Assembly: GCF_023347295.1 (NCBI RefSeq)
Contig: NZ_CP094469.1
Coordinates: 744,001-808,000 of the forward strand
Direction of reading: 5' to 3'
Source: Faecalibacterium sp. I3-3-33
Lineage (GTDB): Bacteria; Bacillota; Clostridia; Oscillospirales; Ruminococcaceae
DNA length: 64,000 nucleotides
Each line of letters opens with the position of its first letter. Positions within the stretch are counted from its first letter, which is position 1. The notes under the pieces were generated by a model. The model was not told the DNA's origin. It worked only from the letters and a program-made list of their open reading frames with translations, and ran no database searches. Both the position numbers and the translations under genes were made by a program. This document shows, in pieces, positions 12,343 to 63,877 of this stretch.

Positions 12343-12553
12343 ATCCAAAATGGCCGCCGCGTGTGCTCTGGCCATATTCAGCGGAAGAATATTTTGAATT
12401 TCGGGGGACAGGAAAGTCTGCGGAGCTTGTCAGGGCGAAGCCCTTCCATCTGCTTGCGCAGACCGCTTTGCCGCTTAAAAGCCCCACTGGGGCTTTCATT
12501 GCTGCGCAAACGCGGACTTTCCTGTCCCCCATTTTCACAAGAGGGGTCGTAAC
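12343..12553 (-). repeat. CGCA-loop dispersed repeat, copy A (expanded loop)
   Basis: Minus-oriented copy. The conserved pseudoknot-like domain is at 12343-12390. Hairpin arms GGGGGACAGGAAAGTC (12403-12418) and GACTTTCCTGTCCCCC (12515-12530) are separated by an expanded loop of 96 nt instead of 4. The loop carries its own GCCCCACTGGGGC hairpin and a CAGGGCGAAGCCCT motif like the second repeat family. The cap ends near 12553. This copy accounts for most of the gap after DUF3842. Confidence 0.8.
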
Positions 12554-12554
12554 A

Positions 12555-12594
12555 AAACAGGCGGCTGTACAAAATGCTGTACAGCCGCCTGTTT
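12555..12594. terminator. Bidirectional terminator
   Basis: A 16-bp perfect stem: AAACAGGCGGCTGTAC (12555-12570) with GTACAGCCGCCTGTTT (12579-12594). It lies between convergent genes and serves the HD gene on minus, and pepV/DUF3842 on plus. Confidence 0.85.
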
Positions 12595-12601
12595 AGTTTA
12601 T

Positions 12602-13189
12602 TCAGCGCATATTGCTGGTACGGTGCTCCATCAGATAGGTAGCCTGCAGGTCTGCGATGTGCAGTTTGACCGCCAGCGGGTACTTGTCGTAGGCTTCCGA
12701 AATGGCAAAACAGCCGCCTCGGGCCGCATCGTCAAAGCCGCCCATGTGCCAGCGGATGGCAACCGCTTCCTCCACCTTCAGCTTCATGAACCGCTCGATG
12801 AGGAACACGCTCTTTTCGCCGTGACCGTAGGGAAACAGGTCGTCCACACTGTAAAAGGGCGCTTTCTCCCACTGCCCGGTGGCTTCGTTCTTCACGTTGC
12901 GGGTGCCCAGCTTGTAGTAGTTAGCCTTGCACAGATCGTGCAGCAGGGCACAGATAGCGTAGCTTTCCTCGCTTTCGCCCTCGGTGAAAAAGCTGTCGTG
13001 CAGCGCGTGGTAGACGTTCAGACTGTGCATACACAGCCCGCCCTCACAGGCTCCGTGAAAACGGGTGGACGCCGGTGCGGTGAAAAAATCCGTCTTTTTG
13101 TCCAGCCAGTCCAGCAGCTTTTCACTGCCCGGGCGGGTGACGTGCTGCTGCCAGACCTCCAGAAACTCTGCGCGGTCGCCCCCGCTCAC
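12602..13189 (-). CDS. HD-domain hydrolase of unknown substrate
   Basis: 195 aa. HD superfamily metal ligands are visible as HSLNVYHALHD (about residues 55-65), then ICALLHDLCKANYY with the His-Asp pair, and a later IRWHMGGFDD. These proteins are generally metal-dependent phosphohydrolases on nucleotides or RNA. The specific substrate cannot be read from sequence. Its start overlaps the end of ydbC by 4 nt, so the two are coupled. Confidence 0.8.
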   Translation of the reverse strand: MSGGDRAEFLEVWQQHVTRPGSEKLLDWLDKKTDFFTAPASTRFHGACEGGLCMHSLNVYHALHDSFFTEGESEESYAICALLHDLCKANYYKLGTRNVKNEATGQWEKAPFYSVDDLFPYGHGEKSVFLIERFMKLKVEEAVAIRWHMGGFDDAARGGCFAISEAYDKYPLAVKLHIADLQATYLMEHRTSNMR

Positions 13190-13407
13190 AGCTCCATGTC
13201 CTCCAGAATGCCCTTGAGGATGGCCAGCTCGTCGTGGCTCAGGGAGATACCCTTGCCCATGCGGGTGCCGTCCGGGGACCAGTCGCGGATGTCGTACTTG
13301 GGCTCGCCGTCATTCCAGCTGATAAGGTTCAGCTGACGCTCCCAGCCGCGGGGACGCTGGCTCAGCACGGCTACACGCTGGACAACTTCGTATTTGATCT
13401 CTGCCAT
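13186..13407 (-). CDS. YdbC family PC4-type ssDNA-binding protein
   Basis: 73 aa from the ATG at 13407; a longer in-frame reading lacks a ribosome site. EIKYEVVQRVAVLS, then LNLISWNDGEPKYDIRDW and GKGISLSHDELAIL, are characteristic of YdbC, a bacterial PC4-fold protein that binds single-stranded DNA as a dimer. A likely role is nucleic-acid binding in transcription or repair. Promoter at 13442-13470. Confidence 0.88.
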   Translation of the reverse strand: MAEIKYEVVQRVAVLSQRPRGWERQLNLISWNDGEPKYDIRDWSPDGTRMGKGISLSHDELAILKGILEDMEL

Positions 13408-13441
13408 ATTGCAAAACCTGCCTTTATGTTTGTATGCTACC

Positions 13442-13470
13442 ATAATAAGGGAAGTACGGCGAGATTTCAA
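13442..13470 (-). promoter_or_regulatory. Promoter for ydbC-HD gene pair
   Basis: On minus, TTGAAA (13470-13465), 17-nt spacer, TATTAT (13447-13442), about 35 nt before the ydbC start. Confidence 0.65.
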
Positions 13471-13508
13471 CAGGTAAACTGAAATATTTCAAAAAATTTT
13501 TATGACAT

Positions 13509-13910
13509 TCAGCCGTAAGGGGCGTCCTCGCGCCATTCCACCAGCTCCAAAACAGCGGCAGTGTCCTCGTCCGGGGCGGGGTGACGGCTGTGCAGCTTCT
13601 GCTTTGTGCTGAACAGCTCGGGCGCGTAGTGCGCCATCACGCTGGTCTGCACGTCCCCGGCCAGAAAGGCGGCGGCATTCTTCTGACGGCAGGCCATGGG
13701 GGTGCCGTCTGTCATGGGGACGCCGGGCTTTTCCGGCTGCGGCAGCTCCGGCGGGGGCAGCTGGGTGCCGGGCGTGTCCGGCGCAGCAGGGGGCTGCAGG
13801 GGCATCCTGCCCAGCGGCGGGGCATTGCGGGTGCTGTTTGCCTGCGGGGCGGCAGCGGTGCCGGGCTGGTTTTCCAGTTCGTGGCGGATGAAGGGCTCCA
13901 GAGAATTCAT
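13509..13910 (-). CDS. Pro/Gln-rich protein of unknown function downstream of sbcC
   Basis: 133 aa from the ATG at 13910, supported by a perfect GGAGGTG seven nt upstream. The N-terminal 65 residues are Pro/Gln/Ala-rich and low-complexity (PLQPPAAPDTPGTQLPPPEL). The C-terminal part (about 65-133) looks folded: DGTPMACRQKNAAAFLAGDV, then HYAPELFSTKQ. No family recognised. It lies 42 nt after sbcC on the same strand and probably belongs to the SbcDC transcript. Confidence 0.6.
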   Translation of the reverse strand: MNSLEPFIRHELENQPGTAAAPQANSTRNAPPLGRMPLQPPAAPDTPGTQLPPPELPQPEKPGVPMTDGTPMACRQKNAAAFLAGDVQTSVMAHYAPELFSTKQKLHSRHPAPDEDTAAVLELVEWREDAPYG

Positions 13911-13952
13911 CAAAATTCACCTCCGCCTCTAGTGTGCCCCGTCGGCGGCGTT

Positions 13953-16757
13953 TTACACCCGCAGCTCTACGGTGGAGCCGCCGGTGCGGGCCTTGTGCAC
14001 CACCACCTGCCGGTCGATGCGGTCCTTGAGCGCCCCCACATGGGAGATGATGCCCACCAGCCGGTCGCCCTCGGTCAGGCCGGAGAGCACCCGGATGGCA
14101 AGCTCCAACGATTCCTCGTCCAAAGAGCCGAAGCCCTCGTCCAGAAACAAAGTATCCAGCCGGATACCGCCGGCGCTGCTCTGCACCTCGTCCGAAAGGC
14201 CCAGCGCCAGCGCCAGCGAAGCCTTGAAGCTCTCGCCGCCGGAAAGGGTCTTTACGCTGCGGCGGGTGCCGTTGTAGTGGTCGATGACGCCAAGGTCCAG
14301 CCCGGACTGGCTGCGCTGGTTCTCTGCGCCGATGCGCTCCAGCTCGTACTGCCCGGCGGTCATCTGCATCAGGCGGGTGTTGGCGTAGCGCAAAATGCGG
14401 TCCAGATAGTTCATTTGGATGTAGGCTTCCAGCTTGATTTTTTGCTTGCTGGTCAGGGTGCCGCCCGCCGTGGCGGCCAGTGCGCTGACCCATTGCCACC
14501 GGCTTTCCAGCGCCTGCCGCGCCTCGGCGGCAGCGCGGTACTGTGCCGCCGTTTTGCGGTTGGGCAGCAACTGTGCCGAAAGCTGCTTTTCCCGGCTGCG
14601 CAAAGCCTCACGCGCGGCGGTCAGCGCGGTCTGCTGTGCGGTAAGCTCCTCGGCGCTGCGGGCGGGCAGTTCCTTTTGGGCAGCGGTCTGCTGTGCGGTC
14701 AGCGCCTCCACAGCAGCTTCAGCGGCGGCAACGCTCTGCTCGGCCTGTTTCAGCTTGCGCTGCGCCGTCTCCATACCGGTGCGCAGGGTGCGGCGGTCGG
14801 CTTCCAGCTTGTCCAGTGCCGCCTGTGCGTCCGCGCGCCGGGGGTAGGGCAGAGCGGCGCGCCGCTCTGCGATTTGACTCTCCAGCGCGTCTGCACTTGC
14901 ATTCTGGGCGGCGGCGCTGCGGTCGGCCTCGGCAGCGGCCTGCTCCAGCGCCGGGCGCTGGCGGGTCTTGGCCTGCCGGTCGGCTTCCAGCTGCGCCTTG
15001 CGGCGGCAGTTGGCCTCAGCCTGTCGGCACTGTGCGGCACAGTCTGCCTGTTCCGTCTGCAAGGCGGCGGCTTCCTCGGCCAGAACGTTGGTCATCAGGG
15101 CAAAGGTGAGGGGGACGGTGCCCTCCGGGGCGGTAAAGCGCTCCGGCAGCAGGGTCTCGGCATCCCGCCGGAGGGAAGTTTTGGCTTCGTTGACAGCAGC
15201 CAGTGCGCTCTGGGCGGCAGCGCTGGCAGTCTGTGCCTGCCGGTCAGCTTCCGCAGCGGCCTGCCGTGCGGCTTCCACCTGTGCCTGCGTGGGCGCGGTA
15301 TGGGGCAGCAGGGCGCGGGCAGGGTGATGGGTACTGCCGCACACCGGGCAGGGGACGCCCTCGACAAGGCTTTCGGCCAGCAGCCCGGCCTGTGCGTCCA
15401 GAAATGCCCGTTCCAGCGCGTCCCGCCGGGCGCGGGCTTCGTCCTGTGCGGCGGCAGCGGCGCGGTAATTCTCCTGCGCCTTGTGGGCGCGTTTTGCCCG
15501 TCGCTGGCATTCCGTAAGGCGCTGCTCCAGCTTTGTCAGTGCTTCGCCGCGCTGTGTCAACTGGGCGCTGCGGTTTTGCAGCGCCAACAGCCGGGTGTCC
15601 GCGTCTGCCAGTGCGGCAAGTTCGGCTTCGGCGGCGGCAAGGGCAGCGTTCAGGTTATCCAGCTGGGTGCGCCGCTTTTGCGCCTGTGCCGCCGCCAGCC
15701 GGGCGGCGTCCCGCGCTTCGGTCTGCTGGCGGCAGACCGCGTCCAGCGCATCATAGGCCGCAAGGGCACTCTGCGCCTGCGTTACCTGTGCGGTCAGGGC
15801 ATCCAGCTGCGCGGCATCCCCGGCGTGACGGTCGGCCTCGGCACGGGCAGCATCCAGTGCGGGCTTTGCGGCGGCAAGCTCAGCCTGCCGGGCAGCCAGC
15901 TGCTGCGCCAGCCGCTGCACCTGTGCGGCGGCACCCAGCTGCTGCTGTACTTTGTTCAGCTGGGCTTCGGTGATGTGCAGGGCGGTGCCGGCTTTCTCCA
16001 GTGCCGCAGCCTGCCGTGCGGTCAGGGCGTCCAGCAAGGTAAGCGCCGTTTCCGGTACAGTCTGGGCGCACAGGGCGCGCAGCGCCTCGGCATCCGGGTC
16101 CTCCGGGCTGAATTGCAGCCCACCCAGCAGGCTGTCCAGCTTGGCGTTCTGGGCGGTGCGCTGCTGGTTCAGCGCGGATGCTTCGGCTTGTAAGCGCTCC
16201 TGCAGCTGGGCGTAGCGCTGGGTGCGGAACAGCTTGCGGAAGATGCGGCTGCGCTCCTCGGTAGAGGCATTGAGCAGCTTTGTGAACTGCCCCTGCGCGA
16301 TGAGTACGATCTGGGAAAACTGGTTATAGTCCAGCCCGATGATCTCCTGCACGGCGGCGGTCACGTCTTTGGCTTTGGTCACCGGCGGACGGCCGTCCGG
16401 GTAGGTCAGGGTGGCATCCGCCTTTTCGGTGGTCATGCCCTCGCCCCGGGCCTTGGGACGCTGATACTCCGGGTTGCGGCGCACCGTGTAGCGCACGCCG
16501 TGCACCTCAAATTCCAGCTCCACAAAGGTGGGGGTCTTGTCGTCCGCGTACTTGCAGCGCAGCATGGAGCCTTCCCGGATGCCGCTGCTGGAATGATCGT
16601 ACAGCGCGTAGGTGATGGCATCAAAAAGGGTAGTCTTGCCCGCGCCGGTGTCGCCGGTAATGAGGTACAGCCCGCCCTTGCCCAGCTTTTCAAGGTCAAG
16701 GGTAGTCTGGGCGGCATAGGGGCCAAAGGCCGAAAGGGTCAGTCGCAGCGGTCTCAT
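13953..16757 (-). CDS. sbcC: Exonuclease SbcCD, ATPase subunit SbcC
   Basis: 934 aa. N-terminal Walker A GDTGAGKTTLFDAITYALYD (about residues 35-54); long Ala/Gln-rich coiled coils interrupted by the zinc hook CPVCGSTHHP (about 470); C-terminal ABC signature LSGGESFKASLALAL and Walker B TLFLDEGFGSLDEESLE. With SbcD it forms the Mre11/Rad50-type complex that processes hairpins and double-strand ends. Start overlaps the sbcD stop by 4 nt. Its coiled-coil coding is so GC-biased that an 870-codon antisense frame stays open; that is an artefact. Confidence 0.95.
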   Translation of the reverse strand: MRPLRLTLSAFGPYAAQTTLDLEKLGKGGLYLITGDTGAGKTTLFDAITYALYDHSSSGIREGSMLRCKYADDKTPTFVELEFEVHGVRYTVRRNPEYQRPKARGEGMTTEKADATLTYPDGRPPVTKAKDVTAAVQEIIGLDYNQFSQIVLIAQGQFTKLLNASTEERSRIFRKLFRTQRYAQLQERLQAEASALNQQRTAQNAKLDSLLGGLQFSPEDPDAEALRALCAQTVPETALTLLDALTARQAAALEKAGTALHITEAQLNKVQQQLGAAAQVQRLAQQLAARQAELAAAKPALDAARAEADRHAGDAAQLDALTAQVTQAQSALAAYDALDAVCRQQTEARDAARLAAAQAQKRRTQLDNLNAALAAAEAELAALADADTRLLALQNRSAQLTQRGEALTKLEQRLTECQRRAKRAHKAQENYRAAAAAQDEARARRDALERAFLDAQAGLLAESLVEGVPCPVCGSTHHPARALLPHTAPTQAQVEAARQAAAEADRQAQTASAAAQSALAAVNEAKTSLRRDAETLLPERFTAPEGTVPLTFALMTNVLAEEAAALQTEQADCAAQCRQAEANCRRKAQLEADRQAKTRQRPALEQAAAEADRSAAAQNASADALESQIAERRAALPYPRRADAQAALDKLEADRRTLRTGMETAQRKLKQAEQSVAAAEAAVEALTAQQTAAQKELPARSAEELTAQQTALTAAREALRSREKQLSAQLLPNRKTAAQYRAAAEARQALESRWQWVSALAATAGGTLTSKQKIKLEAYIQMNYLDRILRYANTRLMQMTAGQYELERIGAENQRSQSGLDLGVIDHYNGTRRSVKTLSGGESFKASLALALGLSDEVQSSAGGIRLDTLFLDEGFGSLDEESLELAIRVLSGLTEGDRLVGIISHVGALKDRIDRQVVVHKARTGGSTVELRV

Positions 16758-17989: not shown

Positions 17990-18124
17990 CTGTTTGCCGT
18001 TGCGACCCCTTCTGTGAAAATGGGACACCGGAGCGTCCGCAGACGCTCCGGTGTCCCAAAATTTAAAATGATTTTTCCGCTGAATATGGCCAAAGCGCAC
18101 GCGGAGGCCATTCCAAATCGTTTT
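17990..18124 (+). repeat. CGCA-loop dispersed repeat, copy B
   Basis: Plus-oriented copy. Cap GCGACCCCTTCTGTGAAAAT precedes the hairpin GGGACACCGGAGCGTC (18022-18037) - CGCA - GACGCTCCGGTGTCCC (18042-18057). After an AT-rich linker comes the conserved 3' domain (18076-18120) with ATGGCC/GGCCAT and CCGC/GCGG helices interleaved. It lies between two minus genes. Confidence 0.85.
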
Positions 18125-34273: not shown

Positions 34274-34275
34274 AA

Positions 34276-34411
34276 CGATTGAAAATGGCCTCCGCTGCGC
34301 TCTGGCCATGAATAGCGGAAGAATTATTTATATTTTCGCGTTTGTCGCGCTCTGCGGAGCGCGACAAACGCTATTTTCACGGGAAAGGTCGTAGAGGAAA
34401 ACAAGTGGCTT
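34276..34411 (-). repeat. CGCA-loop dispersed repeat, copy C1
   Basis: Minus-oriented copy directly after addA. Conserved domain 34276-34323 retains both interleaved helices. Hairpin GCGTTTGTCGCGCTC (34338-34352) / GAGCGCGACAAACGC (34357-34371) has a TGCG loop on plus, i.e. CGCA on its own strand. The cap extends to about 34411. Faces copy C2 across a central hairpin. Confidence 0.85.
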
Positions 34412-34416: not shown

Positions 34417-34449
34417 GCAACGCCTGTTTCCAAAGGAAACAGGCGTTGC
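34417..34449. repeat. Central hairpin between mirror repeats C1 and C2
   Basis: GCAACGCCTGTTTCC (34417-34431) is perfectly complementary to GGAAACAGGCGTTGC (34435-34449) with a 3-nt loop. Forms the axis of a symmetric composite. Confidence 0.8.
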
Positions 34450-34450: not shown

Positions 34451-34586
34451 GATGCTGTTTTGATTTACGACCCCTCCTGTGAAAATGGGTTTCAGGAAAG
34501 TCCGCAGACTTTCCTGAAACCCGAAATTAAAATAACCATTCCGCTGAATATGGCCAGAGCGCAAGCGGAGGCCATTCAAAATCGTC
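34451..34586 (+). repeat. CGCA-loop dispersed repeat, copy C2
   Basis: Plus-oriented copy. Cap ACGACCCCTCCTGTGAAAAT, hairpin GGGTTTCAGGAAAGTC (34487-34502) - CGCA - GACTTTCCTGAAACCC (34507-34522), then the conserved domain (34540-34585) with CCGCT/AGCGG and ATGGCC/GGCCAT. Confidence 0.88.
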
Positions 34587-48887: not shown

Positions 48888-48904
48888 TGTACCAGCCGCC
48901 CGTG

Positions 48905-49018
48905 CCACCTCCCGTGAAAAAGTAAAATTGAAAAATCTGCAGATTTTTCAATTTTACAAAATATAAAAAGAATTCCGCTGATATTGTCAGAGCGTAAGCG
49001 GAGACAATTCTAAATCGT
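48905..49018 (+). repeat. CGCA-loop dispersed repeat, copy D (TGCA loop)
   Basis: Cap ACCTCCCGTGAAAA; hairpin GTAAAATTGAAAAATC (48922-48937) - TGCA - GATTTTTCAATTTTAC (48942-48957). The 3' domain (48971-49018) has ATTGTC/GACAAT in place of ATGGCC/GGCCAT, i.e. two compensatory pair changes, while CCGCT/AGCGG is kept. Confidence 0.85.
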
Positions 49019-52663: not shown

Positions 52664-52739
52664 TTGTACCGGAAGTACCTTAAAAGCATACGCCCCTAAG
52701 CAACGGTATTTTGGTTAAAGTCTGGAGCTGATTACAAAC

Positions 52740-55418: not shown

Positions 55419-55447
55419 TTGACGAACCGGATAAAATGCGCTATACT
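55419..55447 (+). promoter_or_regulatory. Promoter of rpsU
   Basis: TTGACG (55419-55424), 17-nt spacer, TATACT (55442-55447). Confidence 0.8.
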
Positions 55448-55510
55448 GTCTACTGTTAGTTACCATGTAACAACGAAATTCCTGCCTCACGGTCCAAGGG
55501 AGGGAATAAG

Positions 55511-55687
55511 ATGTCGGAAATTCGTGTTAAAGAGGGCGAGTCGCTGGAAAGCGCACTGCGTCGCTTCAAGCGCAGCACTGCTCGCAGCGGTGTGCTCGCA
55601 GAGGTTCGTAAGCGCGAGGCTTACGAGAAGCCGTCTGTTAAGCGCAAGAAGAAGTCCGAAGCAGCCCGCAAGCGCAAGTTCAAGTAA
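55511..55687 (+). CDS. rpsU: 30S ribosomal protein S21
   Basis: 58 aa: [20 protein letters not shown], followed by a basic tail ending [18 protein letters not shown] lies 7 nt before the ATG. S21 aids mRNA binding during initiation. It has its own promoter and terminator, so it is monocistronic here. Easily missed because of its length. Confidence 0.96.
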
Positions 55688-55744
55688 TTGATTGCTTGGA
55701 ATCGCACGTTGCTTTAGATTTTAAACGCGTTGCTAACGCCGATG

Positions 55745-55778
55745 TAGGGGAGCCTGTTTATGCAGGTTCCCCTATTTT
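55745..55778 (+). terminator. Terminator of rpsU
   Basis: TAGGGGAGCCTG (55745-55756) pairs with CAGGTTCCCCTA (55763-55774), one G-U, then TTTT. Confidence 0.85.
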
Positions 55779-55823
55779 CATTTTAAAGCTGCTTTGCGCA
55801 GGGCAGACTGAGAGGGTCTATTT

Positions 55824-56327
55824 ATGCTCATTACCCCCGAATATGTTTTTAAGGACGTTACCCATATCACGCCGGAATGGCTGGCTTCCAAGGGCATCAC
55901 GGCTCTGGTGCTGGATATCGACAACACCCTGACCGCAGACCGCAGTCAGGAAATGCCGGAAGAGGTTGCCGCGTGGCTTGCCGCCATGCGCAAAGCCGGG
56001 GTAAAGCTGACCATCGTCTCCAACGGTGCGGAAAAGCGTGTACGCCCCTTTGCGGAAAAGCTGGGCCTTGCCTACCTGTACCGCGCCGCCAAACCCCTGC
56101 CCTTTGCGCTGATGGTGGCACAGCACCGCATGGGGGTGAAGCACCGCCAGATGGCCATGGTGGGCGACCAGCTTTACGCCGACCGTATGGTGGCTGCGCT
56201 GTACGGCATCCCCGGGCTGATGGTCATCCCCCGCGGGCCGGACTTGGGCGCACAGGTCATCCTCAAGCGCAAGTGGGAAAAGAAACACTGGCAGAAGTAC
56301 TACGACCGGGGAGGTAAGACCCTATGA
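55824..56327 (+). CDS. yqeG: YqeG family HAD IIIA-type phosphatase
   Basis: 167 aa. HAD motif I LVLDIDNTLTADRSQEMP (the two catalytic Asp), motif II LTIVSNGAEKRVRPFAEKLG, and motif IV MVGDQLYADRMVAALYG. Resembles phosphatidylglycerophosphatase GEP4 relatives; the Firmicute substrate is unsettled. ATGA overlap with the next gene. Confidence 0.92.
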   Translation: MLITPEYVFKDVTHITPEWLASKGITALVLDIDNTLTADRSQEMPEEVAAWLAAMRKAGVKLTIVSNGAEKRVRPFAEKLGLAYLYRAAKPLPFALMVAQHRMGVKHRQMAMVGDQLYADRMVAALYGIPGLMVIPRGPDLGAQVILKRKWEKKHWQKYYDRGGKTL

Positions 56328-57193
56328 GTGAAGCTTGGAAGATCCGGTTCGGCACTGCAGGCACCAGCGACAGCTTTGCCGCCCAAGGCTACAAAAGCAG
56401 TCTGGATGTGCCGGAGTACACCGCAAAAATGGGACTGAACGCCTTTGAATACCAGTGCGGGCGCGGGGTGCGTCTGGGGCTGGACAAGGCTGCCCGCATG
56501 GCTGCCCTTGCCGCGGAGCGGGATATCCTGTTCAGCGTCCACGCACCTTATTATATCAGTATGTCCAGTCTGGAAGAGGACAAGCGGCTGAACAGCATCC
56601 AGTACCTGCTGCAAAGTGCAGCGGTGTGCCGGGCGCTGGGCGGCAGACGCATCATCTTCCATTCCGGCAGCTGCGGCAAGCAGAGCCGGGAGGCTGCGCT
56701 GGAAAAGGCGCTGGATACCATGCGCCGCGCTGTGGCTGCGCTGGACGAGGCGGGCTTTGGGGATATGACCCTGTGCCCGGAGACCATGGGCAAGGTGGGG
56801 CAGCTGGGCACGCTGGACGAGGTGCTGGCGCTGTGCGGCGTGGACAGCCGCATCACCCCCTGCATCGACTTCGGCCACCTGAACGCCCGCACGCTGGGCG
56901 GTATCCAGACCAAGGCGGACTATGCCGCCATTCTGGACCGTATGGCCGAGGTGCTGAGGGATGACCGTGCCCGGCAGTTCCATGTGCACTTTTCCCGCAT
57001 TGAGTACTCAGCGGGCGGCGAAAAGCGCCACTGGACCTTTGCCGATACTCAGTTCGGCCCGGAGCCCCAGCCCCTGATGGAGCTGCTGGCACAGCGGCAG
57101 CTGACCCCGGTGGTCATCTGCGAGAGCGCGGGCACACAGGCCGAGGACGCGCAGACGATGCAGCAAATGTACCGCGCAGCGCGGAATGTGTAA
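56324..57193 (+). CDS. TIM-barrel protein of the endonuclease IV/xylose isomerase-like superfamily
   Basis: 289 aa. RFGTAGTSDSFAAQGYKSSL at the N-terminus, FSVHAPYYISMSSLEEDKRL (His ligand), RRIIFHSGSCGKQSREAAL, LCPETMGKVGQLGTLDEVL (Glu ligand), CIDFGHLNAR (Asp/His ligands) and FHVHFSRIEYS. The spacing of metal ligands fits AP endonuclease 2 family TIM barrels. True DNA-repair activity is not certain. Coupled to yqeG. Confidence 0.8.
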   Translation: MSEAWKIRFGTAGTSDSFAAQGYKSSLDVPEYTAKMGLNAFEYQCGRGVRLGLDKAARMAALAAERDILFSVHAPYYISMSSLEEDKRLNSIQYLLQSAAVCRALGGRRIIFHSGSCGKQSREAALEKALDTMRRAVAALDEAGFGDMTLCPETMGKVGQLGTLDEVLALCGVDSRITPCIDFGHLNARTLGGIQTKADYAAILDRMAEVLRDDRARQFHVHFSRIEYSAGGEKRHWTFADTQFGPEPQPLMELLAQRQLTPVVICESAGTQAEDAQTMQQMYRAARNV

Positions 57194-57232
57194 AAAATTT
57201 TGTGTTTTTATCGTCTTTTTTGCCCAAACCCC

Positions 57233-57261
57233 TTGCCAAACCGGGGCAGATTGGGTAAAAT
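57233..57261 (+). promoter_or_regulatory. Promoter of efp
   Basis: TTGCCA (57233-57238), 17-nt spacer, TAAAAT (57256-57261). Confidence 0.75.
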
Positions 57262-57312
57262 AAATAGAGATATGCGTTAAGCATCTGAGATTAAATTTAT
57301 GGAGGAATTCCT

Positions 57313-57870
57313 ATGATTTCTGCAGGCGAGTTTCGCAATGGCGTGACCTTTGAGCAGGACGGCCAGGTTCTTCAGGTCGTTGAGTTCCAGCACGTCAAGC
57401 CCGGCAAGGGCGCTGCCTTTGTCCGTACCAAGACCAAGAACGTTATCACCGGCTCTGTGGTCGAGACCAGCTACAACCCCACCGCAAAGTTCCCGCAGGC
57501 TTTCATCGAGCGTAAGGACGTGACTTACAGCTACGAGGATGGCGACCTGTACCACTTCATGGACAACGAGACCTACGATGACATCCCCGTCAACGCAGCC
57601 GATGTGCCCGATAACTTCAAGTTCTGCAAGGAGAACGAGCTGTGCAAGCTGCTGAGTTACAAGGGCAAGGTGTTCAGCGTCGAGATCCCCAACTTCATCG
57701 AGCTGGAAGTCACCCAGACCGAGCCGGGTGTCAAGGGCAACACTGCTACCAACACCCTGAAGCCCGCTACCGTTGAGACTGGCGCCGAGATCCGTGTGCC
57801 TCTGTTCATCAACGAGGGCGATCACATCCGCATCGATACCCGCACCGGCGAGTATATGGAGCGCGTCTGA
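57313..57870 (+). CDS. efp: Elongation factor P
   Basis: 185 aa, full length. N-terminal KOW-like domain with [20 protein letters not shown]; Lys32 is at the tip that is modified in many bacteria. Then two OB folds, with the C-terminal [20 protein letters not shown] and [17 protein letters not shown]. Relieves polyproline stalling. AGGAGG precedes the ATG. Confidence 0.97.
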
Positions 57871-57892
57871 TCATTTGTCGCATACCGGGCAG

Positions 57893-57915
57893 CGGGCAAC
57901 CGTTTGCCCGGTTTT
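57893..57915 (+). terminator. Hairpin after efp
   Basis: CGGGCAA (57893-57899) with TTGCCCG (57904-57910), then TTTT. Likely partial termination before the CD1247-type gene. Confidence 0.6.
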
Positions 57916-57942
57916 GTATTATAAGTTAGGAGGGCATTTCAG

Positions 57943-58506
57943 ATGGAACTGAACAAGAAAGCAGCCTACCTGCAGGGCTTAGTGGACGGTCTGGGCGTGG
58001 ATGAGAGCACCAAAGAGGGCAAGATCATCAAGGCCATGGCCGCGCTGCTGGGCGAGATGGCCGATGCCATTGCCGCCATGGACGAGGATCTGACCCAAGC
58101 CTACGACCAGATCAACGATCTGAGCGAGGAGCTGGAGGATCTGGAAGCCGACCTGTACGAGGACGAGGATGCCGAGGACGAGGACGACGAGGATGAGGAT
58201 GCGGGAGATGACGACATCGCCAGCGAGCCCTTCTACGAGGTAGCCTGCCCCGCCTGCGGCGAGACCGTCTACGTCAGCGAGGATGATCTGGATGCAGGCG
58301 AAGCCAACTGCGCCCACTGCGGTGTGACCTTTGAGGTCGCACTGGAAGGTGACGAGGACGAAGCCAAGGACGCCCCCGTGCAGTACGAAGTGACCTGCCC
58401 CGCCTGCGGAAAGACCGCCGTATTTGAGGAGGATGAGCTGCTGGACGGCGCACCCAAGTGCCCCAACTGCGGCGAGCCGCTGGACTTTGAGGTGACCGAG
58501 GAGTAA
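57943..58506 (+). CDS. CD1247 N-terminal domain-type acidic zinc-ribbon protein
   Basis: 187 aa. N-terminal helical domain KAAYLQGLVDGLGVDESTKE, recognised from CD1247-type proteins; a strongly acidic linker (about residues 65-92, Glu/Asp runs); two C-terminal zinc ribbons: CPACGETVYV with CAHCGVTFEV, and CPACGKTAVF with CPNCGEPLDF. Cytosolic; function unknown. Follows efp after 72 nt, probably on the same transcript. Confidence 0.85.
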   Translation: MELNKKAAYLQGLVDGLGVDESTKEGKIIKAMAALLGEMADAIAAMDEDLTQAYDQINDLSEELEDLEADLYEDEDAEDEDDEDEDAGDDDIASEPFYEVACPACGETVYVSEDDLDAGEANCAHCGVTFEVALEGDEDEAKDAPVQYEVTCPACGKTAVFEEDELLDGAPKCPNCGEPLDFEVTEE

Positions 58507-58511
58507 ATGCT

Positions 58512-58685
58512 TCTCTTGTGAAAATGGGATCCAGAAAATAACGCCTTTTGCTGCTGATGCTGTTTTCCTTTACGACCCTACCGTGAAAAGGCAATTTTGG
58601 AAAATCCGCAGATTTTCCAAAATTGCAATTTAAAACAAAATTCCTATGAATATGGCCAAAGCGTACGCGGAGGCCATTTCCAATC
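58512..58685 (+). repeat. CGCA-loop dispersed repeat, copy E
   Basis: Begins with an extra cap-like fragment (CTTGTGAAAATGGG, about 58514-58528), as though one copy was inserted in another. Hairpin GCAATTTTGGAAAATC (58591-58606) - CGCA - GATTTTCCAAAATTGC (58611-58626). The 3' domain (58638-58684) keeps ATGGCC/GGCCAT; the CCGCT helix is degraded to CCTAT. Confidence 0.82.
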
Positions 58686-58690
58686 GTCCT

Positions 58691-58734
58691 TATAAAAACG
58701 CAATGCCGGGCAGTCCGCAGACTGTCCGGCATTG
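58691..58734 (-). terminator. Terminator of the 58751 gene, with a CGCA loop
   Basis: CAATGCCGGGCAGTC (58701-58715) - CGCA - GACTGTCCGGCATTG (58720-58734), one G-U pair. On minus it follows the stop at 58751 and is followed by a U-run (CGTTTTTATA). The loop is the same as in the repeat hairpins. Confidence 0.8.
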
Positions 58735-58750
58735 TTCATTTTAACTTGTT

Positions 58751-59038
58751 TCAGCGGTTCTCGTTGGCCTTCTGCAGCCAGATGCCGCCAATGTCCAGCG
58801 CATTGTACAGGCCGTGCTTGGTGGTCTGACGCGCTACGCGCTCCTGCGGAGCCTTGGTGGTATCGGTAGAAAGCAACATCAGGTGCACCTTGTCGGCTAC
58901 CTGCTGCTCGCCCACCGGGGTGGTGGTCAGGATCTGCAGATACAGCACATAGGGATCGGTCATGCTGCCGTAATACAGCTCGTTGTCCTTGCGGACGAGG
59001 GGCTTGCCTTTATAAGTCAGTTTCGGTGTAAATGCCAT
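58751..59038 (-). CDS. Small conserved-looking protein of unknown function
   Basis: 95 aa with GGGAGG ten nt before the ATG, and its own terminator. Soluble, mixed alpha/beta composition: FTPKLTYKGKPLVRKDNELY, then GSMTDPYVLYLQILTTTPVG and ARQTTKHGLYNALDIGGIWL. No family recognised. Divergent from the SGNH hydrolase gene. Confidence 0.75.
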   Translation of the reverse strand: MAFTPKLTYKGKPLVRKDNELYYGSMTDPYVLYLQILTTTPVGEQQVADKVHLMLLSTDTTKAPQERVARQTTKHGLYNALDIGGIWLQKANENR

Positions 59039-59186
59039 CGTGAAAGCCTCCCTGTCGTTTGATTCATCTTAGTATAACACATCCTGCCTATGGGATGCAA
59101 GCGTTTGAGGCAGTGCACTGTCAGTTTTGCACCAAAACTGCCCCGCACCGTGCAAAACCGGCGGCACATTTTTGGCAAATGGGGCT

Positions 59187-59214
59187 TGCCGTTGGGTGCA
59201 GTTATGCTATACTA
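59187..59214 (+). promoter_or_regulatory. Promoter of the SGNH hydrolase gene
   Basis: TTGCCG (59187-59192), 16-nt spacer, TATACT (59209-59214). Confidence 0.65.
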
Positions 59215-59259
59215 TAAATAGAACAGCCCGCATTCCGGGCCGGAAGTGAGGGAACGACA

Positions 59260-60159
59260 ATGGCAGATTATCAGGAATACCGGCGGCGCATCCTGCACCG
59301 GCGCTGGCGCAGGGTGTTTATCATCGTTGCCCTTCTGGCGCTGGTGGCTCTGCTGAGCGCCATCGGCATTCTGTGGAAGGTGCTGCACCGGGAGCGCGTG
59401 GATACCGCCCTGAGCCAGAACACCATTCTGCGGCAGGTGACTACGGACAACACATGGAACACGGTCAGCTATCCGTTGGCGCGGCAGCTCCGGGTGCAGA
59501 CGCTGGAGGGCAGCACGGAAACGGCGCTGGACTTCCGCATGGCGGCGCTGCCGGCCAGCGCTCCGGTGGAAAAAAGCTGGTTTGCGCAGGCCAGCTTTGT
59601 GGGCGACAGCCTGACACAGGGGCTGCAGATCTACGATACCGGCCTGCCCGGGGCGCAGTTCTGCGCCTATAAAGGGGTAGGCCCCAACGCCTTTGTCAAC
59701 GGAACCAGCTGCAAGCGGGTGGACGGCGTGGCAGAGATCCCGCTGGACGCCTTGACCGCCCAGCAGCCCAAGGCCGTTTATGTGCTGCTGGGCAGCAACG
59801 TGCTGGGGCGGGACACCGATTACACCAGCTTTTTGACCTACTACCGTCTGATGCTGGATATGATCAGTCAGGCGCTGCCGGATGCAAAGATCTATGTGCA
59901 GTCTATCACGCCGGTACGGCCGGAGGTGAGCGCACAGGAAAACCACGCGGGACTGAATCGCGATCGCCTGTGCCGCATCAACAACGAGCTGGCCGCCATT
60001 GCACTGGAAAAGGACTGCTATTTCCTCAACCTGTGGGAGGTGCTGGCGGACGAAAACGGCGACCTGATCGAAAGCTATGCCCAGTCGGACGGCTACCACA
60101 TCAAGCCGGAGGGCTACGCCGCATGGGTGGACTACCTTTGCAGCCACACAATGGAGTAA
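59260..60159 (+). CDS. Membrane-anchored SGNH/GDSL hydrolase
   Basis: 299 aa. Basic N-terminus, one membrane helix (about 19-40), so the catalytic domain lies outside the cell. Block I FVGDSLTQGLQ with nucleophile Ser117; block III AVYVLLGSNVLG; C-terminal Ser-Asp-x-x-His block QSDGYHIKPEGY. Probably a wall-polymer or carbohydrate esterase; substrate unknown. Good RBS and terminator, single-gene unit. Confidence 0.85.
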   Translation: MADYQEYRRRILHRRWRRVFIIVALLALVALLSAIGILWKVLHRERVDTALSQNTILRQVTTDNTWNTVSYPLARQLRVQTLEGSTETALDFRMAALPASAPVEKSWFAQASFVGDSLTQGLQIYDTGLPGAQFCAYKGVGPNAFVNGTSCKRVDGVAEIPLDALTAQQPKAVYVLLGSNVLGRDTDYTSFLTYYRLMLDMISQALPDAKIYVQSITPVRPEVSAQENHAGLNRDRLCRINNELAAIALEKDCYFLNLWEVLADENGDLIESYAQSDGYHIKPEGYAAWVDYLCSHTME

Positions 60160-60168
60160 AAAAACACA

Positions 60169-60204
60169 AAAGGCTGTTGCACGGGGATTTGTGCAGCAGC
60201 CTTT
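60169..60204 (+). terminator. Terminator of the SGNH hydrolase gene
   Basis: AAAGGCTGTTGCAC (60169-60182) pairs with GTGCAGCAGCCTTT (60191-60204), one G-U pair. Confidence 0.75.
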
Positions 60205-60217
60205 CTTGCTGTGTGGG

Positions 60218-60345
60218 ACGATTTGGAATGCCCTCTGCGTTGCTTTGGGCATCTTCAGCGGAAAAATTATTTTATATTTCGCGTTTGTCGCGCCCTGCGG
60301 GGCGCGACAAACGCATTTTCACAGTAGGAGCTGTTTCCGGTGGTA
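60218..60345 (-). repeat. CGCA-loop dispersed repeat, copy F1
   Basis: Minus-oriented copy. Hairpin GCGTTTGTCGCGCCC (60281-60295) / GGGCGCGACAAACGC (60300-60314), loop CGCA on its own strand; arms nearly equal those of C1. In the 3' domain (60218-60267) helix 2 reads ATGCCC/GGGCAT, a compensated change. Confidence 0.83.
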
Positions 60346-60346
60346 C

Positions 60347-60461
60347 CTTTTTCCGTGAAAAAAGTGGTTCAGAAACGTCCGCAGACGTTTCTGAACCACG
60401 ATCATAAAACTAAAATACCTTGATTTATGGTCAGAGCGAAGCGGAGACCATCAAAATCGTT
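60347..60461 (+). repeat. CGCA-loop dispersed repeat, copy F2
   Basis: Plus-oriented partner facing F1. Hairpin GTGGTTCAGAAACGTC (60364-60379) - CGCA - GACGTTTCTGAACCAC (60384-60399). 3' domain (60420-60461) with helix 2 ATGGTC/GACCAT (compensated); helix 1 is lost. Confidence 0.83.
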
Positions 60462-60490
60462 TTGCTGCAAAAAGGGCTGAGAGCGCCAGC

Positions 60491-62152
60491 TCAGAACAGA
60501 CCGGTGACCTTGCCGTCGGCATCCACATCGATGTTCACGGCGGCGGGCTTTTTGGGCAGGCCGGGCATGGTCATGATGTTGCCGCAGATGACGACCACGA
60601 AGCCAGCACCGGCGGCCAGACGCACCTCGCGTACCTCCATGGTAAAGCCGGTGGGGGCACCGGTCAGCTTGGCGTTGTCGCTGAAGCTGTACTGGGTCTT
60701 GGCAATGCAGACGGGCAGGTTGCCATAGCCCATCTCGGTCAGCTCGGCCAGCGTCTTGCTGGCGGCGGCGCTGTAATTCACGCCGTCGGCGCGGTAGATC
60801 TTGGTGGCAATGGCGTTGATCTTGTCCTTCAGGGGCATCTCCAGCGGGTAGGTGTACTGGATGGGACGATCCTCCAGGATCTCCAGCACCTTCTCAGCCA
60901 GTGCCTTGCCGCCCTCGCCGCCCTTGGCGAACACCTCGCTCAGCACGCAGGGCACGCCCTGCTCGGCGCAGACCTGCTCCACATAAGCCTGCTCCTCGGC
61001 GGTATCGGTGGGGAAGGCGTTGATGGCAACCACCACCGGCAGACCGAAGCCATTCTTCAGGTTGTCGATGTGACGGATCAGGTTGGAGGCACCGGCCTTG
61101 ACAGCCTCGAGATTGGGCTGGTTCAGGTCAGCCTTGGCTACGCCGCCGTGGCTCTTGAGGGCACGCACGGTAGCCACCAGCACACAGGCAGAGGGGGCAA
61201 TGCCGGCGTAGCGGCACTTGATATCCAAGAACTTCTCCGCACCCAGATCGGCGCCGAAGCCTGCCTCGGTAATGGTATAGTCTGCCAGCGAGAGGCTGAG
61301 CTTGGTGGCCAGCACGCTGTTGCAGCCGTGGGCAATGTTGGCAAAGGGGCCGCCGTGGATGATGGCGGGGTTGTTTTCCAGTGTCTGCACAAGGTTCGGG
61401 TCCAGTGCATCCTTCAGCAGGGCGGTCATGGCACCGGCTGCGCCGATCTCACCGGCAGTCACCGGCTTGCCATCGTAGGTGTAGGCGCACACGATGCGGG
61501 ACAGCCGCTCTTTCAGGTCGGAGATGCTGGTGGCAAGGCAGAAGATGGCCATGACTTCGCTGGCCACAGTAATGTCAAAGCCGTCCTCGCGGGGGGTGCC
61601 GTTCACCTTGCCGCCCAGACCGTCCACGATGAACCGCAGCTGCCGGTCGTTCATGTCCATGCAGCGCTTCCAAGTGATGCGGCGGGGGTCGATGTTCAGC
61701 GGGTTGCCCTGCTGGATGCTGTTGTCGATCATGGCAGCCAGCAGGTTGTTGGCGGTGCCAATGGCGTGCAGGTCGCCGGTAAAGTGCAGGTTGATGTCCT
61801 CCATGGGCACCACCTGTGCGTAGCCGCCGCCGGCAGCGCCGCCCTTTACGCCGAACACGGGGCCAAGGCTGGGCTCGCGCAGGCAGAGCATGGTCTTTTT
61901 GCCCAGCGCGTTCATGGCATCGGCCAGACCTACGCTGGTGGTGGTCTTGCCCTCACCGGCAGGGGTGGGGCTGATGGCGGTGACAAGGATCAGCTTGCCC
62001 TGCTTTTTGGCGTTGTGGATCAGCCGGTGGTCGATCTTGGCCTTGTAGCGGCCATAGGGAATCACACTTTCCTCCTCCAGACCCAGCTGGGCTGCGATCT
62101 GGGTAATCGGCTTCATTTTAGCTTCCTGCGCGATCTCGATATCGGTCTTCAT
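60491..62152 (-). CDS. fhs: Formate-tetrahydrofolate ligase
   Basis: 553 aa from 62152, preceded by AAGGAGGA. The open frame extends upstream, but that part is riboswitch sequence. P-loop [94 protein letters not shown]. Makes 10-formyl-THF from formate, THF and ATP for purine synthesis and one-carbon flux. Controlled by the ZTP-type riboswitch upstream. Confidence 0.96.
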
Positions 62153-62173
62153 ACAGACATCCTCCTTGATAGC

Positions 62174-62293
62174 AAAAAAAGGACAGCTTTGCGCAGCAAT
62201 TGCGCAAGGCTGCCCAGACGGTCGGCATTGACATCCCATGCATCCCTGCACTGTGGTGCTCCACAAGGTTCCGTCAGCAGGGATGCGGTCTAT
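62174..62293 (-). promoter_or_regulatory. ZTP (pfl-type) riboswitch with terminator, upstream of fhs
   Basis: Minus strand. Helix GCATCCCTGC (62286-62277) / GCAGGGATGC (62249-62240) encloses a TGTGG/CCACA hairpin. Downstream is the family hallmark CCGTCTGGGCA (62221-62211). The terminator starts inside this motif: GGGCAGC-c-TTGCGCA (62215-62201) with TGCGCAA-a-GCTGTCC (62195-62181), then U7 (62180-62174). Ligand binding to the aptamer would sequester CTGGGCA and allow read-through. ZTP/ZMP signals folate shortage, fitting fhs. Confidence 0.82.
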
Positions 62294-62299
62294 GCTGTA

Positions 62300-62329
62300 A
62301 AGATAGCACACCACCGGGGTGTTTGTCAA
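62300..62329 (-). promoter_or_regulatory. Promoter of the ZTP riboswitch-fhs unit
   Basis: On minus, TTGACA (62329-62324), 18-nt spacer, TATCTT (62305-62300). Confidence 0.7.
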
Positions 62330-62371
62330 GGAGGTACAGTTACAAAAATCACCCATAAATGCAGAAAATTT

Positions 62372-62400
62372 TTGCGTTATCCAAGGGTTTGTGCTATACT
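62372..62400 (+). promoter_or_regulatory. Promoter of the cysteine desulfurase gene
   Basis: TTGCGT (62372-62377), 17-nt spacer, TATACT (62395-62400), divergent from the fhs promoter. Confidence 0.65.
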
Positions 62401-62448
62401 TATTCTGGGTTATTATGAAAACAACGACAGAAAGCAGGAAATCCGTTT

Positions 62449-63600
62449 ATGCTGCAAAACCCTCAGTTACATTATCTGGACAACGCGGCCACCACCATCG
62501 TAGCGCCGGAGGTGGCGGACGTTATCGACAAGGCCATGCGGGAGCACTGGGCAAACCCTTCCAGCCTGTACGGCCCGGGCGCGCGCAGTGAAGAAGCCCT
62601 GAACGCCGCCCGCGCCGCCGTGGCGCGCACGCTGGGCTGCAAAAGCCGGGAGCTGTACTTTACCTCCTGCGGCAGCGAGAGCAACAATCTGGCGCTGCTG
62701 GGCGCGGTGCAGACCCGCACCTTCGGCAAGGGCATCGTGGTGTCCGGCTTCGAGCACCCCAGCGTGCAGCGGCCGCTGGAGCGGCTGGCAAAGCAGGGCT
62801 ACGACGTTACCGTGGTAGCACCCCGGGCAGACGGCACGCTGGACATTGCCGCCATGCTGGAGCGGGTGGACAAAAACACCATCCTTGTAGCCTGCATGAT
62901 GGTGAACAACGAGATCGGCACCCGCAACGATGTGGAGCGCCTTGCCGCCGAGGTAAAGCGCCGCAACAGCCGCACCATCGTCCATGTGGACGCAGTGCAG
63001 GCGTGGATGCGTGTGCCCATCAAGTTGGACAACATCGATACACTCTCGGTGAGCGGCCACAAGATCCATGCCCCCAAGGGCATTGGTGCGCTCTACCTTT
63101 CCGACCGGCTGGTGCAGGCCTTCCAGCCGCCCTATCTGGGCGGCGAGCAGGAGCGGCAGATGCGTCCCGGCACCGAAAACCTGCCCTACGCCATGGGTCT
63201 GGCCGCAGCGGCCACCCGTCTGGCAAAGACCATGAAGAGCCGGGACACCGCCATGCGTGCGCTGAACCGGCAGCTGAGGGAGGGGCTGAAAGCCTTCCCG
63301 GAGGTGGTCATCAACAGCCCGGAGAACGCCGTGCCCGAGGTGCTGAACTTCAGCGAGATGTGCATCAAGAGCGAGACGATGCTGGCTTTTCTGGCCGAGG
63401 AGCAGATCTACGTTTCCTCCGCCAGTGCCTGCGGGCGCGGTCAGCCCAGCCACACGCTGGCAGCCATGGGGCGCGACCCGCTTGCCATCGATACCGCCAT
63501 CCGGGTGTCCTTCTGCGCCGACAACACCCCGGAGGATGTGGACGCCTTCCTCAACCGCTTCGAGAACGGCATGAAGCACCTGCAGAAGATCAGAAAGTAA
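62449..63600 (+). CDS. Cysteine desulfurase (NifS/IscS-like)
   Basis: 383 aa. Fold-type I PLP enzyme: LHYLDNAATTIVAPEVADVI, FTSCGSESNNLALLG, MMVNNEIGTRNDVERL, HVDAVQAW, Schiff-base Lys205 in LSVSGHKIHAPKGIGALYL, and active-site Cys328 in SSASACGRGQPSH. Supplies persulfide sulfur. Because thiI follows, it likely serves s4U8 tRNA synthesis, as in the Bacillus NifZ-ThiI pair, but iron-sulfur or other roles are possible. Confidence 0.93.
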   Translation: MLQNPQLHYLDNAATTIVAPEVADVIDKAMREHWANPSSLYGPGARSEEALNAARAAVARTLGCKSRELYFTSCGSESNNLALLGAVQTRTFGKGIVVSGFEHPSVQRPLERLAKQGYDVTVVAPRADGTLDIAAMLERVDKNTILVACMMVNNEIGTRNDVERLAAEVKRRNSRTIVHVDAVQAWMRVPIKLDNIDTLSVSGHKIHAPKGIGALYLSDRLVQAFQPPYLGGEQERQMRPGTENLPYAMGLAAAATRLAKTMKSRDTAMRALNRQLREGLKAFPEVVINSPENAVPEVLNFSEMCIKSETMLAFLAEEQIYVSSASACGRGQPSHTLAAMGRDPLAIDTAIRVSFCADNTPEDVDAFLNRFENGMKHLQKIRK

Positions 63601-63628
63601 AAACTGAAGCCGCAGAACGGCTGACAGC

Positions 63629-63721
63629 TTTCTCTTCGGACACGAATCGGGCCATTCCATCGCCCGCCCTATTGCCCTGCGGGCAACAGGGTCCCACCCC
63701 AGCGGACGGTCCTCAGAGAAA
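63629..63721 (-). repeat. 93-bp repeat module, second copy (inverted)
   Basis: Exact reverse complement of 48795-48887 by eye. Flanks AGAACGGCTGACAG (63614-63627) and CTGTCAGCCGTTCT (63722-63735) form a perfect 14-bp stem unrelated in sequence to that of the other copy. Confidence 0.85.
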
Positions 63722-63749
63722 CTGTCAGCCGTTCTATGGGAAGATGCAG

Positions 63750-63877
63750 TTTGCCTGCGCGACCCCAATGCGTGAAAGGGTGAATGGAAAATGACCGCAG
63801 TCATTTTCCATTCACAGATAAAAATAATTCATCCGCTGAATATGGCCAGAGCGAAAGCGGAGGCCATTATAAATCCC
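63750..63877 (+). repeat. CGCA-loop dispersed repeat, copy H
   Basis: Cap CGACCCCAATGCGTGAAAGG; hairpin GTGAATGGAAAATGAC (63780-63795) - CGCA - GTCATTTTCCATTCAC (63800-63815); 3' domain (63831-63876) with CCGCT/AGCGG and ATGGCC/GGCCAT intact. Ends just before the thiI ribosome site. Confidence 0.86.

What the first reader, a model, noticed from the sequence alone, without database searches (positions are those of the whole stretch)
12343..63877. Dispersed repeat whose hairpin arms differ in every location but always self-pair around CGCA
Nine copies (12343-12553, 17990-18124, 34276-34411, 34451-34586, 48905-49018, 58512-58685, 60218-60345, 60347-60461, 63750-63877) share a cap resembling CGACCCCTCCTGTGAAAA and a conserved 3' domain. 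Between them lies a 15-16 bp perfect hairpin. Arm sequences range from GGGACACCGGAGCGTC to GTAAAATTGAAAAATC, yet each copy is self-complementary and the loop is CGCA (TGCA once, expanded once). Keeping a perfect stem while its sequence diverges this far implies strong structural selection or an unusual copying mechanism. RAYT/REP elements, by contrast, normally conserve stem sequence. I know of no named family with this behaviour.
Basis: seen in the sequence. Interest (0 to 1): 0.82.

Follow-up and report, generated by a model that had tools for sequence, protein, structure and literature searches.

The report
Faecalibacterium mobile repeat with swappable DNA hairpins
A gut bacterium carries about 150 copies of a small repeat built round a perfect 16-base-pair hairpin whose sequence differs between many places, and comparison with relatives shows that whole hairpins can be exchanged in place while their pairing is kept.

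Summary
All nine window copies carry the hairpin; the own genome (genus Faecalibacterium) has at least 150 hits (capped). Of 61 genomes searched 12 match, all in this genus. In 113 distinct 16-bp hairpins 14 of 16 pairs covary and only 14 of 1808 cells are G-U. G.T and A.C mismatches are about equal (16 and 13), and copies between tandem genes show no strand bias: constraint looks DNA-level or strand-symmetric. Close pairs are inverted, cap to cap (22 of 23), and some sites are empty in relatives: REPIN/BIME-like DNA, but without the Y1 transposase in this genome. In shared insertions stems change 0.8% per site against 5.1% in flanking DNA, which neutral template switching would not give. Yet 13 of 38 orthologous pairs with the same 3' half (8 sites) differ in the stem, at 7 sites by paired changes: hairpins are swapped or altered in place. 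Verdict: new variant of a known kind, a mosaic non-autonomous repeat with exchangeable, structure-conserved hairpins. The driving enzyme and any host function are unknown.

The parts
12340..12554 (-). copy with perfect 16-bp outer stem (arms 12403-12418 and 12515-12530) and a 96-nt loop that holds its own hairpins
   Evidence: empty site in G022, short loop in G026
18001..18121 (+). full copy; hairpin 18022-18057 GGGACACCGGAGCGTC, loop CGCA; same stem in orthologues in G022 and G026, loop TGCG (inverted) in G026
34275..34393 (-). left half of an inverted doublet; hairpin 34338-34371
34417..34449 (.). central hairpin (15-bp arms GCAACGCCTGTTTCC, loop AAA) between the two halves of the doublet
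34466..34585 (+). right half of the doublet; hairpin 34487-34522; the whole doublet is absent from G022 and G026
48901..49018 (+). full copy; hairpin 48922-48957, AT-rich stem, loop TGCA
58571..58687 (+). full copy; hairpin 58591-58626; a broken copy (cap and part of a 5' arm) lies at about 58512-58548
58700..58735 (+). further hairpin of the same design (loop CGCA, 16 pairs of which two are G.T) without the 3' domain
60218..60335 (-). left half of a second doublet; hairpin 60281-60314
60344..60460 (+). right half of the second doublet; hairpin 60364-60399; doublet absent from G022, G003 and G026
63758..63877 (+). full copy; hairpin 63780-63815

Best explanation
A genus-restricted, non-autonomous, REPIN/BIME-like mobile repeat. 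A unit (about 120 bp) is a cap (like ACGACCCCTCCCGTGAAAA), a 16-bp hairpin closed by CGCA, an AT-rich spacer and a 3' domain with a second stem; two units joined cap to cap form an inverted doublet with 3' domains at both ends. What is conserved is the shape of the hairpin plus a few fixed positions, on both strands alike. Shown: covariation, strand symmetry, presence/absence at orthologous sites, slow stem change in resident copies, and sites where hairpin and cap differ between strains while spacer, 3' domain and host flanks stay. Inferred: the exchange is ectopic recombination or gene conversion between copies, which moves both arms together and so keeps pairing; new stems arise by rare paired changes (compensation or template switching) and spread by exchange and transposition; an unidentified trans-acting enzyme that binds a single-strand hairpin or cruciform recognises the shape.
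For: Covariation: 14 of 16 pairs with both-side changes in 113 distinct hairpins, score 0.837 against 0.213 shuffled and at most 0.175 when slid. Strand symmetry: G.T+T.G 16, A.C+C.A 13 among 2083 pairs of 132 distinct hairpins (binomial p 0.71); between tandem genes 25 copies with the genes, 26 against. Placement: 3 of 100 copies overlap gene calls; 39 of 98 lie between convergent genes against 85 of 646 neighbouring gene pairs (p 2e-9; doublet halves count twice). Doublets: 22 of 23 close pairs cap to cap. Presence/absence: both window doublets are missing in close relatives. Mosaic: same-stem copies in the own genome are barely more alike in the 3' domain (0.718) than different-stem copies (0.686). 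Exchange: 13 of 38 orthologous pairs with the same 3' half differ in the stem, 8 sites, 7 of them by paired changes; e.g. G029/G030 with 9 of 16 pairs changed and 3' domain 98% identical; cap identity at the 7 sites 0.64-0.86 against a mean of 0.94 in the 25 same-stem pairs. Constraint: stem 8 of 1006 sites changed, host flank 145 of 2833, in 32 same-insertion pairs (pairs share genomes and sites, so p values are optimistic).
Against: No transposase or recombinase was tied to the family: Y1 (PF01797) and RVT_1 are absent from the own genome, and in the fetched 0.85 Mb no transposase-like repeated gene lies beside copies. No regular target-site duplication; many empty sites show small losses or composite insertions, so some absences may be deletions. 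Slow stem change in resident copies is not expected of purely selfish DNA, so a host function or continued correction may be needed. Exchange tracts of some 60 bp with little homology are short for ordinary RecA conversion (recalled). At three of the 7 paired-change sites the spacer is only 0.77 alike (L095, L115, L260), so independent insertion at one site is not excluded there; at three (L239, L259, L095) only 2-4 pairs changed, which may be stepwise.
Confidence: 0.6

Rival explanations
1. RNA-level element: the hairpin acts in the transcript, as a terminator or a 3'-end stabiliser between genes.
For: Enriched between convergent genes (39 of 98). In window 48000-64000 the hairpins of 2 of 5 copies score as terminator-like on the antisense strand, where the stem is followed by TTTTTCAC or TTTTTTCAC. 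IS200 copies in relatives sit directly behind family hairpins much as one sits behind a terminator-like hairpin. A hairpin working in both directions would also need Watson-Crick pairs on both strands.
Against: G-U only 14 of 1808 cells and no excess over A.C; no orientation bias between tandem genes, 25 against 26; mostly A-rich sequence, not a T-run, directly after the stem on the element's own strand. A transcript-orientation test had only five informative mismatches (3 wobble, 2 A-C), so it decides nothing.
Confidence: 0.17
2. Neutral template switching (quasipalindrome correction): replication copies one arm onto the other, so stems stay perfect while drifting freely.
For: Known to homogenise arms and invert spacers (PMC8604942 and PMC8794818, abstracts). 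One orthologous copy has its loop inverted, CGCA to TGCG, on an unchanged stem. 6 of 8 stem substitutions in same-insertion pairs are parts of paired changes.
Against: The neutral version predicts stem divergence like the flank (my inference); observed 0.8% against 5.1%. Stem length, closing pair and loop are conserved. A tandem G.A mismatch class (5' arm with TTTGGAGC) persists in 27 of 247 copies and several sequence variants instead of being corrected. Paired one-step differences are 18 transitions to 16 transversions whereas single mismatches are 19 to 2 (p 0.007).
Confidence: 0.1
3. A true REP/REPIN system driven by a RAYT-like Y1 transposase, now lost from this strain.
For: Y1 genes or fragments occur in 6 of the 8 copy-rich genus genomes and 5 of the 23 others (Fisher p 0.012, one post-hoc test). 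Doublet architecture.
Against: None in the own genome nor in G030. Of 17 Y1 matches 16 loci were searched. The four of these that I read (L248, L290, L296, L297) show IS200-type elements: in L290, L296 and L297 the IS end lies directly behind a family hairpin or in its cap, in L248 behind another hairpin with a T-run. So the IS uses hairpins as insertion targets and the repeats do not frame it; this may also explain the co-occurrence. No GT(A/G)G head: 0 of 100 own copies have it within 8 nt of the stem.
Confidence: 0.08
4. A dedicated hairpin-cassette exchange: an enzyme swaps whole hairpins between fixed docking sites.
For: The 3' limit of the exchanged tract lies within a base or two of the end of the stem in the clearest cases (L089:9540, L261:13415).
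Against: The 3' domain is also exchanged while the hairpin stays (L097:7999 and L089:12171 against G003), as ordinary recombination would do; no enzyme known.
Confidence: 0.05

Closest known systems
REPINs / BIMEs with RAYT transposases
   Same: Extragenic, many copies, inverted doublets forming hairpins, compensatory changes, strain-specific (PMC3116915 and PMC2817692, passages).
   Different: No GT(A/G)G head, no Y1 transposase in this genome, unit about 120 bp with two covarying stems, stem exchanged in place between strains.
Pneumococcal BOX, RUP and SPRITE repeats
   Same: Modular small interspersed repeats with strong secondary structure in a Gram-positive (PMC3049150, passages).
   Different: Different modules and structure; the words compensatory and covariation do not occur in that text.
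Bacterial MITEs
   Same: Short, non-autonomous, doublet with inverted ends.
   Different: No cognate IS and no regular target duplication found (partial searches).
Template-switch (quasipalindrome) evolution of hairpins
   Same: Paired multi-base changes and one loop inversion.
   Different: Stem divergence far below the flank; whole stems replaced by quite different ones.

Membership tests
REP / REPIN | extragenic, high copy number | tested here: met
   at least 150 hits (cap reached); 3 of 100 copies overlap crude gene calls
REP / REPIN | inverted doublets forming hairpins | tested here: met
   22 of 23 pairs closer than 350 bp among 150 hits are inverted with one polarity
REP / REPIN | GT(A/G)G head beside the palindrome | tested here: not met
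   0 of 100 own-genome copies have it within 8 nt before the stem; 92 have GTGAAA within 12 nt (the pick required a GTGAAA-like motif)
REP / REPIN | cognate RAYT (Y1_Tnp) in the genome, flanked by the repeats | tested here: not met
   no PF01797 match in the own genome
MITE | terminal inverted repeats | tested here: met
   doublets end in inverted 3' domains; single copies lack this
MITE | target-site duplication of fixed length | tested here: inconclusive
   32 empty-site rows, some redundant; overlaps irregular, small losses or composite insertions frequent
MITE | autonomous IS with the same ends | tested here: inconclusive
   among 687 gene calls in 0.85 of 2.99 Mb the repeated genes were 8 two-member groups, by their look not transposases
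Rfam RNA families | match at gathering score | tested here: not met
   whole window: only 6S and ZTP riboswitch; doublet alone: five weak matches far below gathering score
Template-switch hairpin | arm homogenisation with neutral divergence | tested here: not met
   stem 8/1006 against flank 145/2833
Template-switch hairpin | inversion of the loop | tested here: met
   1 of 25 same-stem orthologous pairs
BOX element | boxA-boxB-boxC modules | not tested
   no alignment made; compared by description only

The most novel reading that the evidence does not exclude
Faecalibacterium has a hairpin-cassette system: some 150 chromosomal docking sites hold interchangeable perfect 16-bp DNA hairpins, which an unknown enzyme recognises by shape and swaps between sites, and which the host keeps under purifying selection for a DNA-level role between converging genes.
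Probability: 0.1. Interest if true: 0.85.

Novelty: new variant of a known kind. Interest (0 to 1): 0.52.

Why it matters
It separates two things usually seen together: conservation of a hairpin and conservation of its sequence. The strand-symmetric pattern with almost no wobble pairs points to selection on DNA folding, which is hard to show from sequence alone, and the in-place differences record ectopic exchange of short tracts in a common human gut commensal. It also supplies some 80 distinct perfect stems for testing how hairpins are kept perfect: selection, conversion or template switching.

Tried and rejected
Rejected: (1) known RNA family. (2) RAYT/Y1-driven REP in this genome. (3) Reverse-transcriptase-driven copying: PF00078 is absent from the own genome and present in 13 of 31 genus genomes, 5 of 8 copy-rich and 8 of 23 others. 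(4) Autonomous transposase gene next to copies: none seen. (5) Phage or plasmid origin: no plasmid match; 14 unannotated faecal 'Bacteriophage sp.' records match, not followed, they may be bacterial contigs. The 25 viral stretches with the short exact pattern and the 3 of 21 genome records outside Faecalibacterium give no model match. (6) The pseudoknot CCGC...GCGG seen by eye in the 3' domain: no pair with both-side changes, and 12 of 110 copies break one pair. (7) Neutral template switching alone.

Limits. Copies for the statistics were picked by scripts that need a cap-like motif, a 3' motif, G first and C last in the stem and at least n-6 paired positions, and that favour CGCA-like loops. 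So 'percent paired', the loop share and the invariance of pair 1 are biased upward, and copies are missed: only 5 of the 9 window copies are in that set. G.T and A.C are treated alike by the pick. For the G.T/A.C count 37 of 247 copies were dropped first: those with more than 3 mismatches and those whose 5' arm contains TTTGGAGC or TTTGTCGC. A5 holds only n=16 hairpins (113); A6 was made from 110 of 166 references (149 printed), my shortened choice. Own-genome stretches were chosen round hits (0.85 of 2.99 Mb). Gene calls are a crude codon-usage model. One search scored at most 59 and at most 24 candidates a genome with strict filters, so weak relatives can be missed. Some contexts were wrongly assigned; one search replaces it. 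The stem-rate test leaves out hairpins differing at more than 5 of 36 positions, i.e. the swaps, and pairs with divergent flanks.
Full report
What is there. The window lies in a 2,994,777-base chromosome (744001-808000). The genus is Faecalibacterium: of 21 named genome stretches with the exact core pattern 18 are Faecalibacterium; the other three have no model match. A unit reads cap - 16-bp hairpin with loop CGCA - AT-rich spacer - 3' domain with a second stem ATGNNC...GNNCAT. A covariance model from eight window copies gave 150 hits in the own genome, the number of candidates scored, so the true count may be higher. In a sample of 148 family genomes only the own genome matched (strict filters). 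Rfam has no match at gathering score.

Chance. The window has 11 perfect hairpins with arms of 13 bp or more, 8 of them these copies, against 2 unrelated ones in 117,689 bases from copy-poor relatives, mostly one orthologous region. In 854,782 bases of the own genome, chosen round hits, 93 of 174 perfect hairpins (arms of 12 or more) have a CGCA/TGCG loop and 70 of those have arms of exactly 16 bp.

Covariation. In 247 picked copies from eight genomes (2.45 Mb) 185 have no mismatch and 226 have the loop CGCA. For 113 distinct 16-bp hairpins 98.9% of cells pair, 14 of 16 pairs have both-side changes, and the covariation score is 0.837 against 0.213 for shuffles and 0.07-0.175 for slid partners. 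The pick favours paired copies and fixes pair 1, but not which base pairs occur. Ten of the 16 positions show all four Watson-Crick pairs. C16 is invariant and G9 and A11 nearly so. The 3'-domain stem also covaries (four of six pairs); a pseudoknot helix seen by eye does not.

DNA or RNA. A one-way RNA hairpin should tolerate G-U (general knowledge). Here G-U is 14 of 1808 cells, and among distinct hairpins G.T and A.C mismatches are 16 and 13. Between tandem genes copies lie 25 with and 26 against the genes. 39 of 98 copies lie between convergent genes against 85 of 646 neighbouring pairs, and 8 between divergent ones (p 2e-16 for the table, doublet halves counted twice). The pattern is what a DNA hairpin or cruciform, or a function that must work from both strands, would give. 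A bidirectional terminator is not excluded.

Mobility and architecture. 22 of 23 pairs of hits closer than 350 bp are cap to cap, as in REPINs. The doublet at 34275-34585 is absent from G022 and G026, and the one at 60218-60460 from G022, G003 and G026. Empty sites show no regular duplication. Y1 transposase and reverse transcriptase families are absent from the own genome. In copy-rich relatives IS200-type elements sit directly behind family hairpins or in their caps (L290, L296, L297), so hairpins serve as IS targets; this is not evidence that the IS moves them.

Mosaic structure and stem exchange. Copies of the own genome that share a stem are hardly more alike in the 3' domain than others (0.718 against 0.686; 15 of 500 shuffles reach the observed value). 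Of 38 orthologous pairs with the same spacer, 3' domain and host flank, 25 (21 sites by the first copy) keep the stem and 13 differ, at 8 sites. One site (L089:9540) has three stems in four genomes; at another (L261/L271) nine of sixteen pairs differ while the 3' domain is 98% identical. Three sites differ by 2-4 pairs only (L239, L259, L095), and one by a single unpaired change (G009/G030). The reverse also occurs: same stem, new 3' domain (G000 against G003). The cap differs with the hairpin (identity 0.64-0.86 at the seven paired-change sites; mean 0.94 in same-stem pairs).

Constraint in place. In 32 same-insertion pairs the stem changed at 8 of 1006 sites (0.8%), the loop at 3 of 128, the 3' domain at 3.6%, the spacer at 4.1%, the host flank at 5.1% and the cap at 9.2% (stem against host p 1e-11, optimistic because pairs share sites). 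Six of the eight stem changes belong to paired changes (L113/L251, one pair, a transversion; L239/L283, two pairs). Under neutral template switching the stem should diverge like the flank (my inference), so that model fails alone, though one loop inversion (CGCA to TGCG) is its mark. In the own genome, copies whose 3' domain is gone or unrecognised have perfect stems in 12 of 17 cases, against 64 of 83 with it. A relic in copy-poor genome G020 keeps a perfect 16-bp stem of quite different sequence.

Literature. Searches of the held library listed no paper describing this Faecalibacterium repeat; that is a statement about those listings only. The REPIN paper already notes common compensatory changes (PMC3116915, passages), so divergence with kept pairing is not without precedent; exchange of the stem in place is, to my knowledge, the unusual part. 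RepRanger does not mention Faecalibacterium in its main text (PMC12306157, term search).

Verdict. A genus-specific, non-autonomous, mosaic repeat that works like a REPIN/BIME but fails the transposase and head tests in this genome; its hairpin is kept as a strand-symmetric structure and can be exchanged between copies as a unit. Mechanism of exchange, mobilising enzyme and host role are inferred or unknown.

Noticed in passing
window 25093-25297 (-): 6S RNA (Rfam RF00013, 66.9 bits).
   Followed up: no
window 62205-62291 (-): ZMP/ZTP riboswitch (RF01750, 54.2 bits).
   Followed up: no
window 48784-48898 and 63618-63732: 115-nt inverted repeat, 93% complementary, just upstream of two of the copies: another dispersed repeat.
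   Followed up: no
L089, L091, L108 and other intergenic stretches next to copies: A second repeat family (CCCTCAGTC ... GACAGCTCCC) also seems to carry hairpins of differing sequence, and recurs in composite insertions.
   Followed up: no
L091:2195, L092:4303, L098:9509, L103:13924, L107:8610, L109:4916, L126:3910: These copies have their 3' domain cut by one and the same module with CAACGACGACGACCGCCGCC, as if a further element targets this point.
   Followed up: no
window 12419-12514; L090:12766, L097:18575, L102:5497, L116:6929, L124:9270: Some copies have an insertion in the hairpin loop, several with an AAAGCCCC-type hairpin of its own; the outer stem is perfect in the window case.
   Followed up: partly
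e.g. L110:3360, L109:4916 (own genome), L255:16664 (G029): A stem class keeps a tandem G.A mismatch (GCGTTTGGAGCGCTC / GAGCGCGACAAACGC and variants): 27 of 247 picked copies in 7 of 8 genomes, 12 of them in the own genome.
   Followed up: partly
G000 chromosome: Hits are denser outside 1.0-2.0 Mb (126 of 150) than within it (24 of 150), perhaps origin-near, if base 1 is near the origin.
   Followed up: no
L248 about 15060-15815; L290 about 2120-2880; L296 from about 2450; L297 to about 3110: IS200-type elements or fragments inserted directly behind hairpins followed by T-runs: behind a family hairpin or in its cap in L290, L296 and L297, behind another hairpin in L248.
   Followed up: partly
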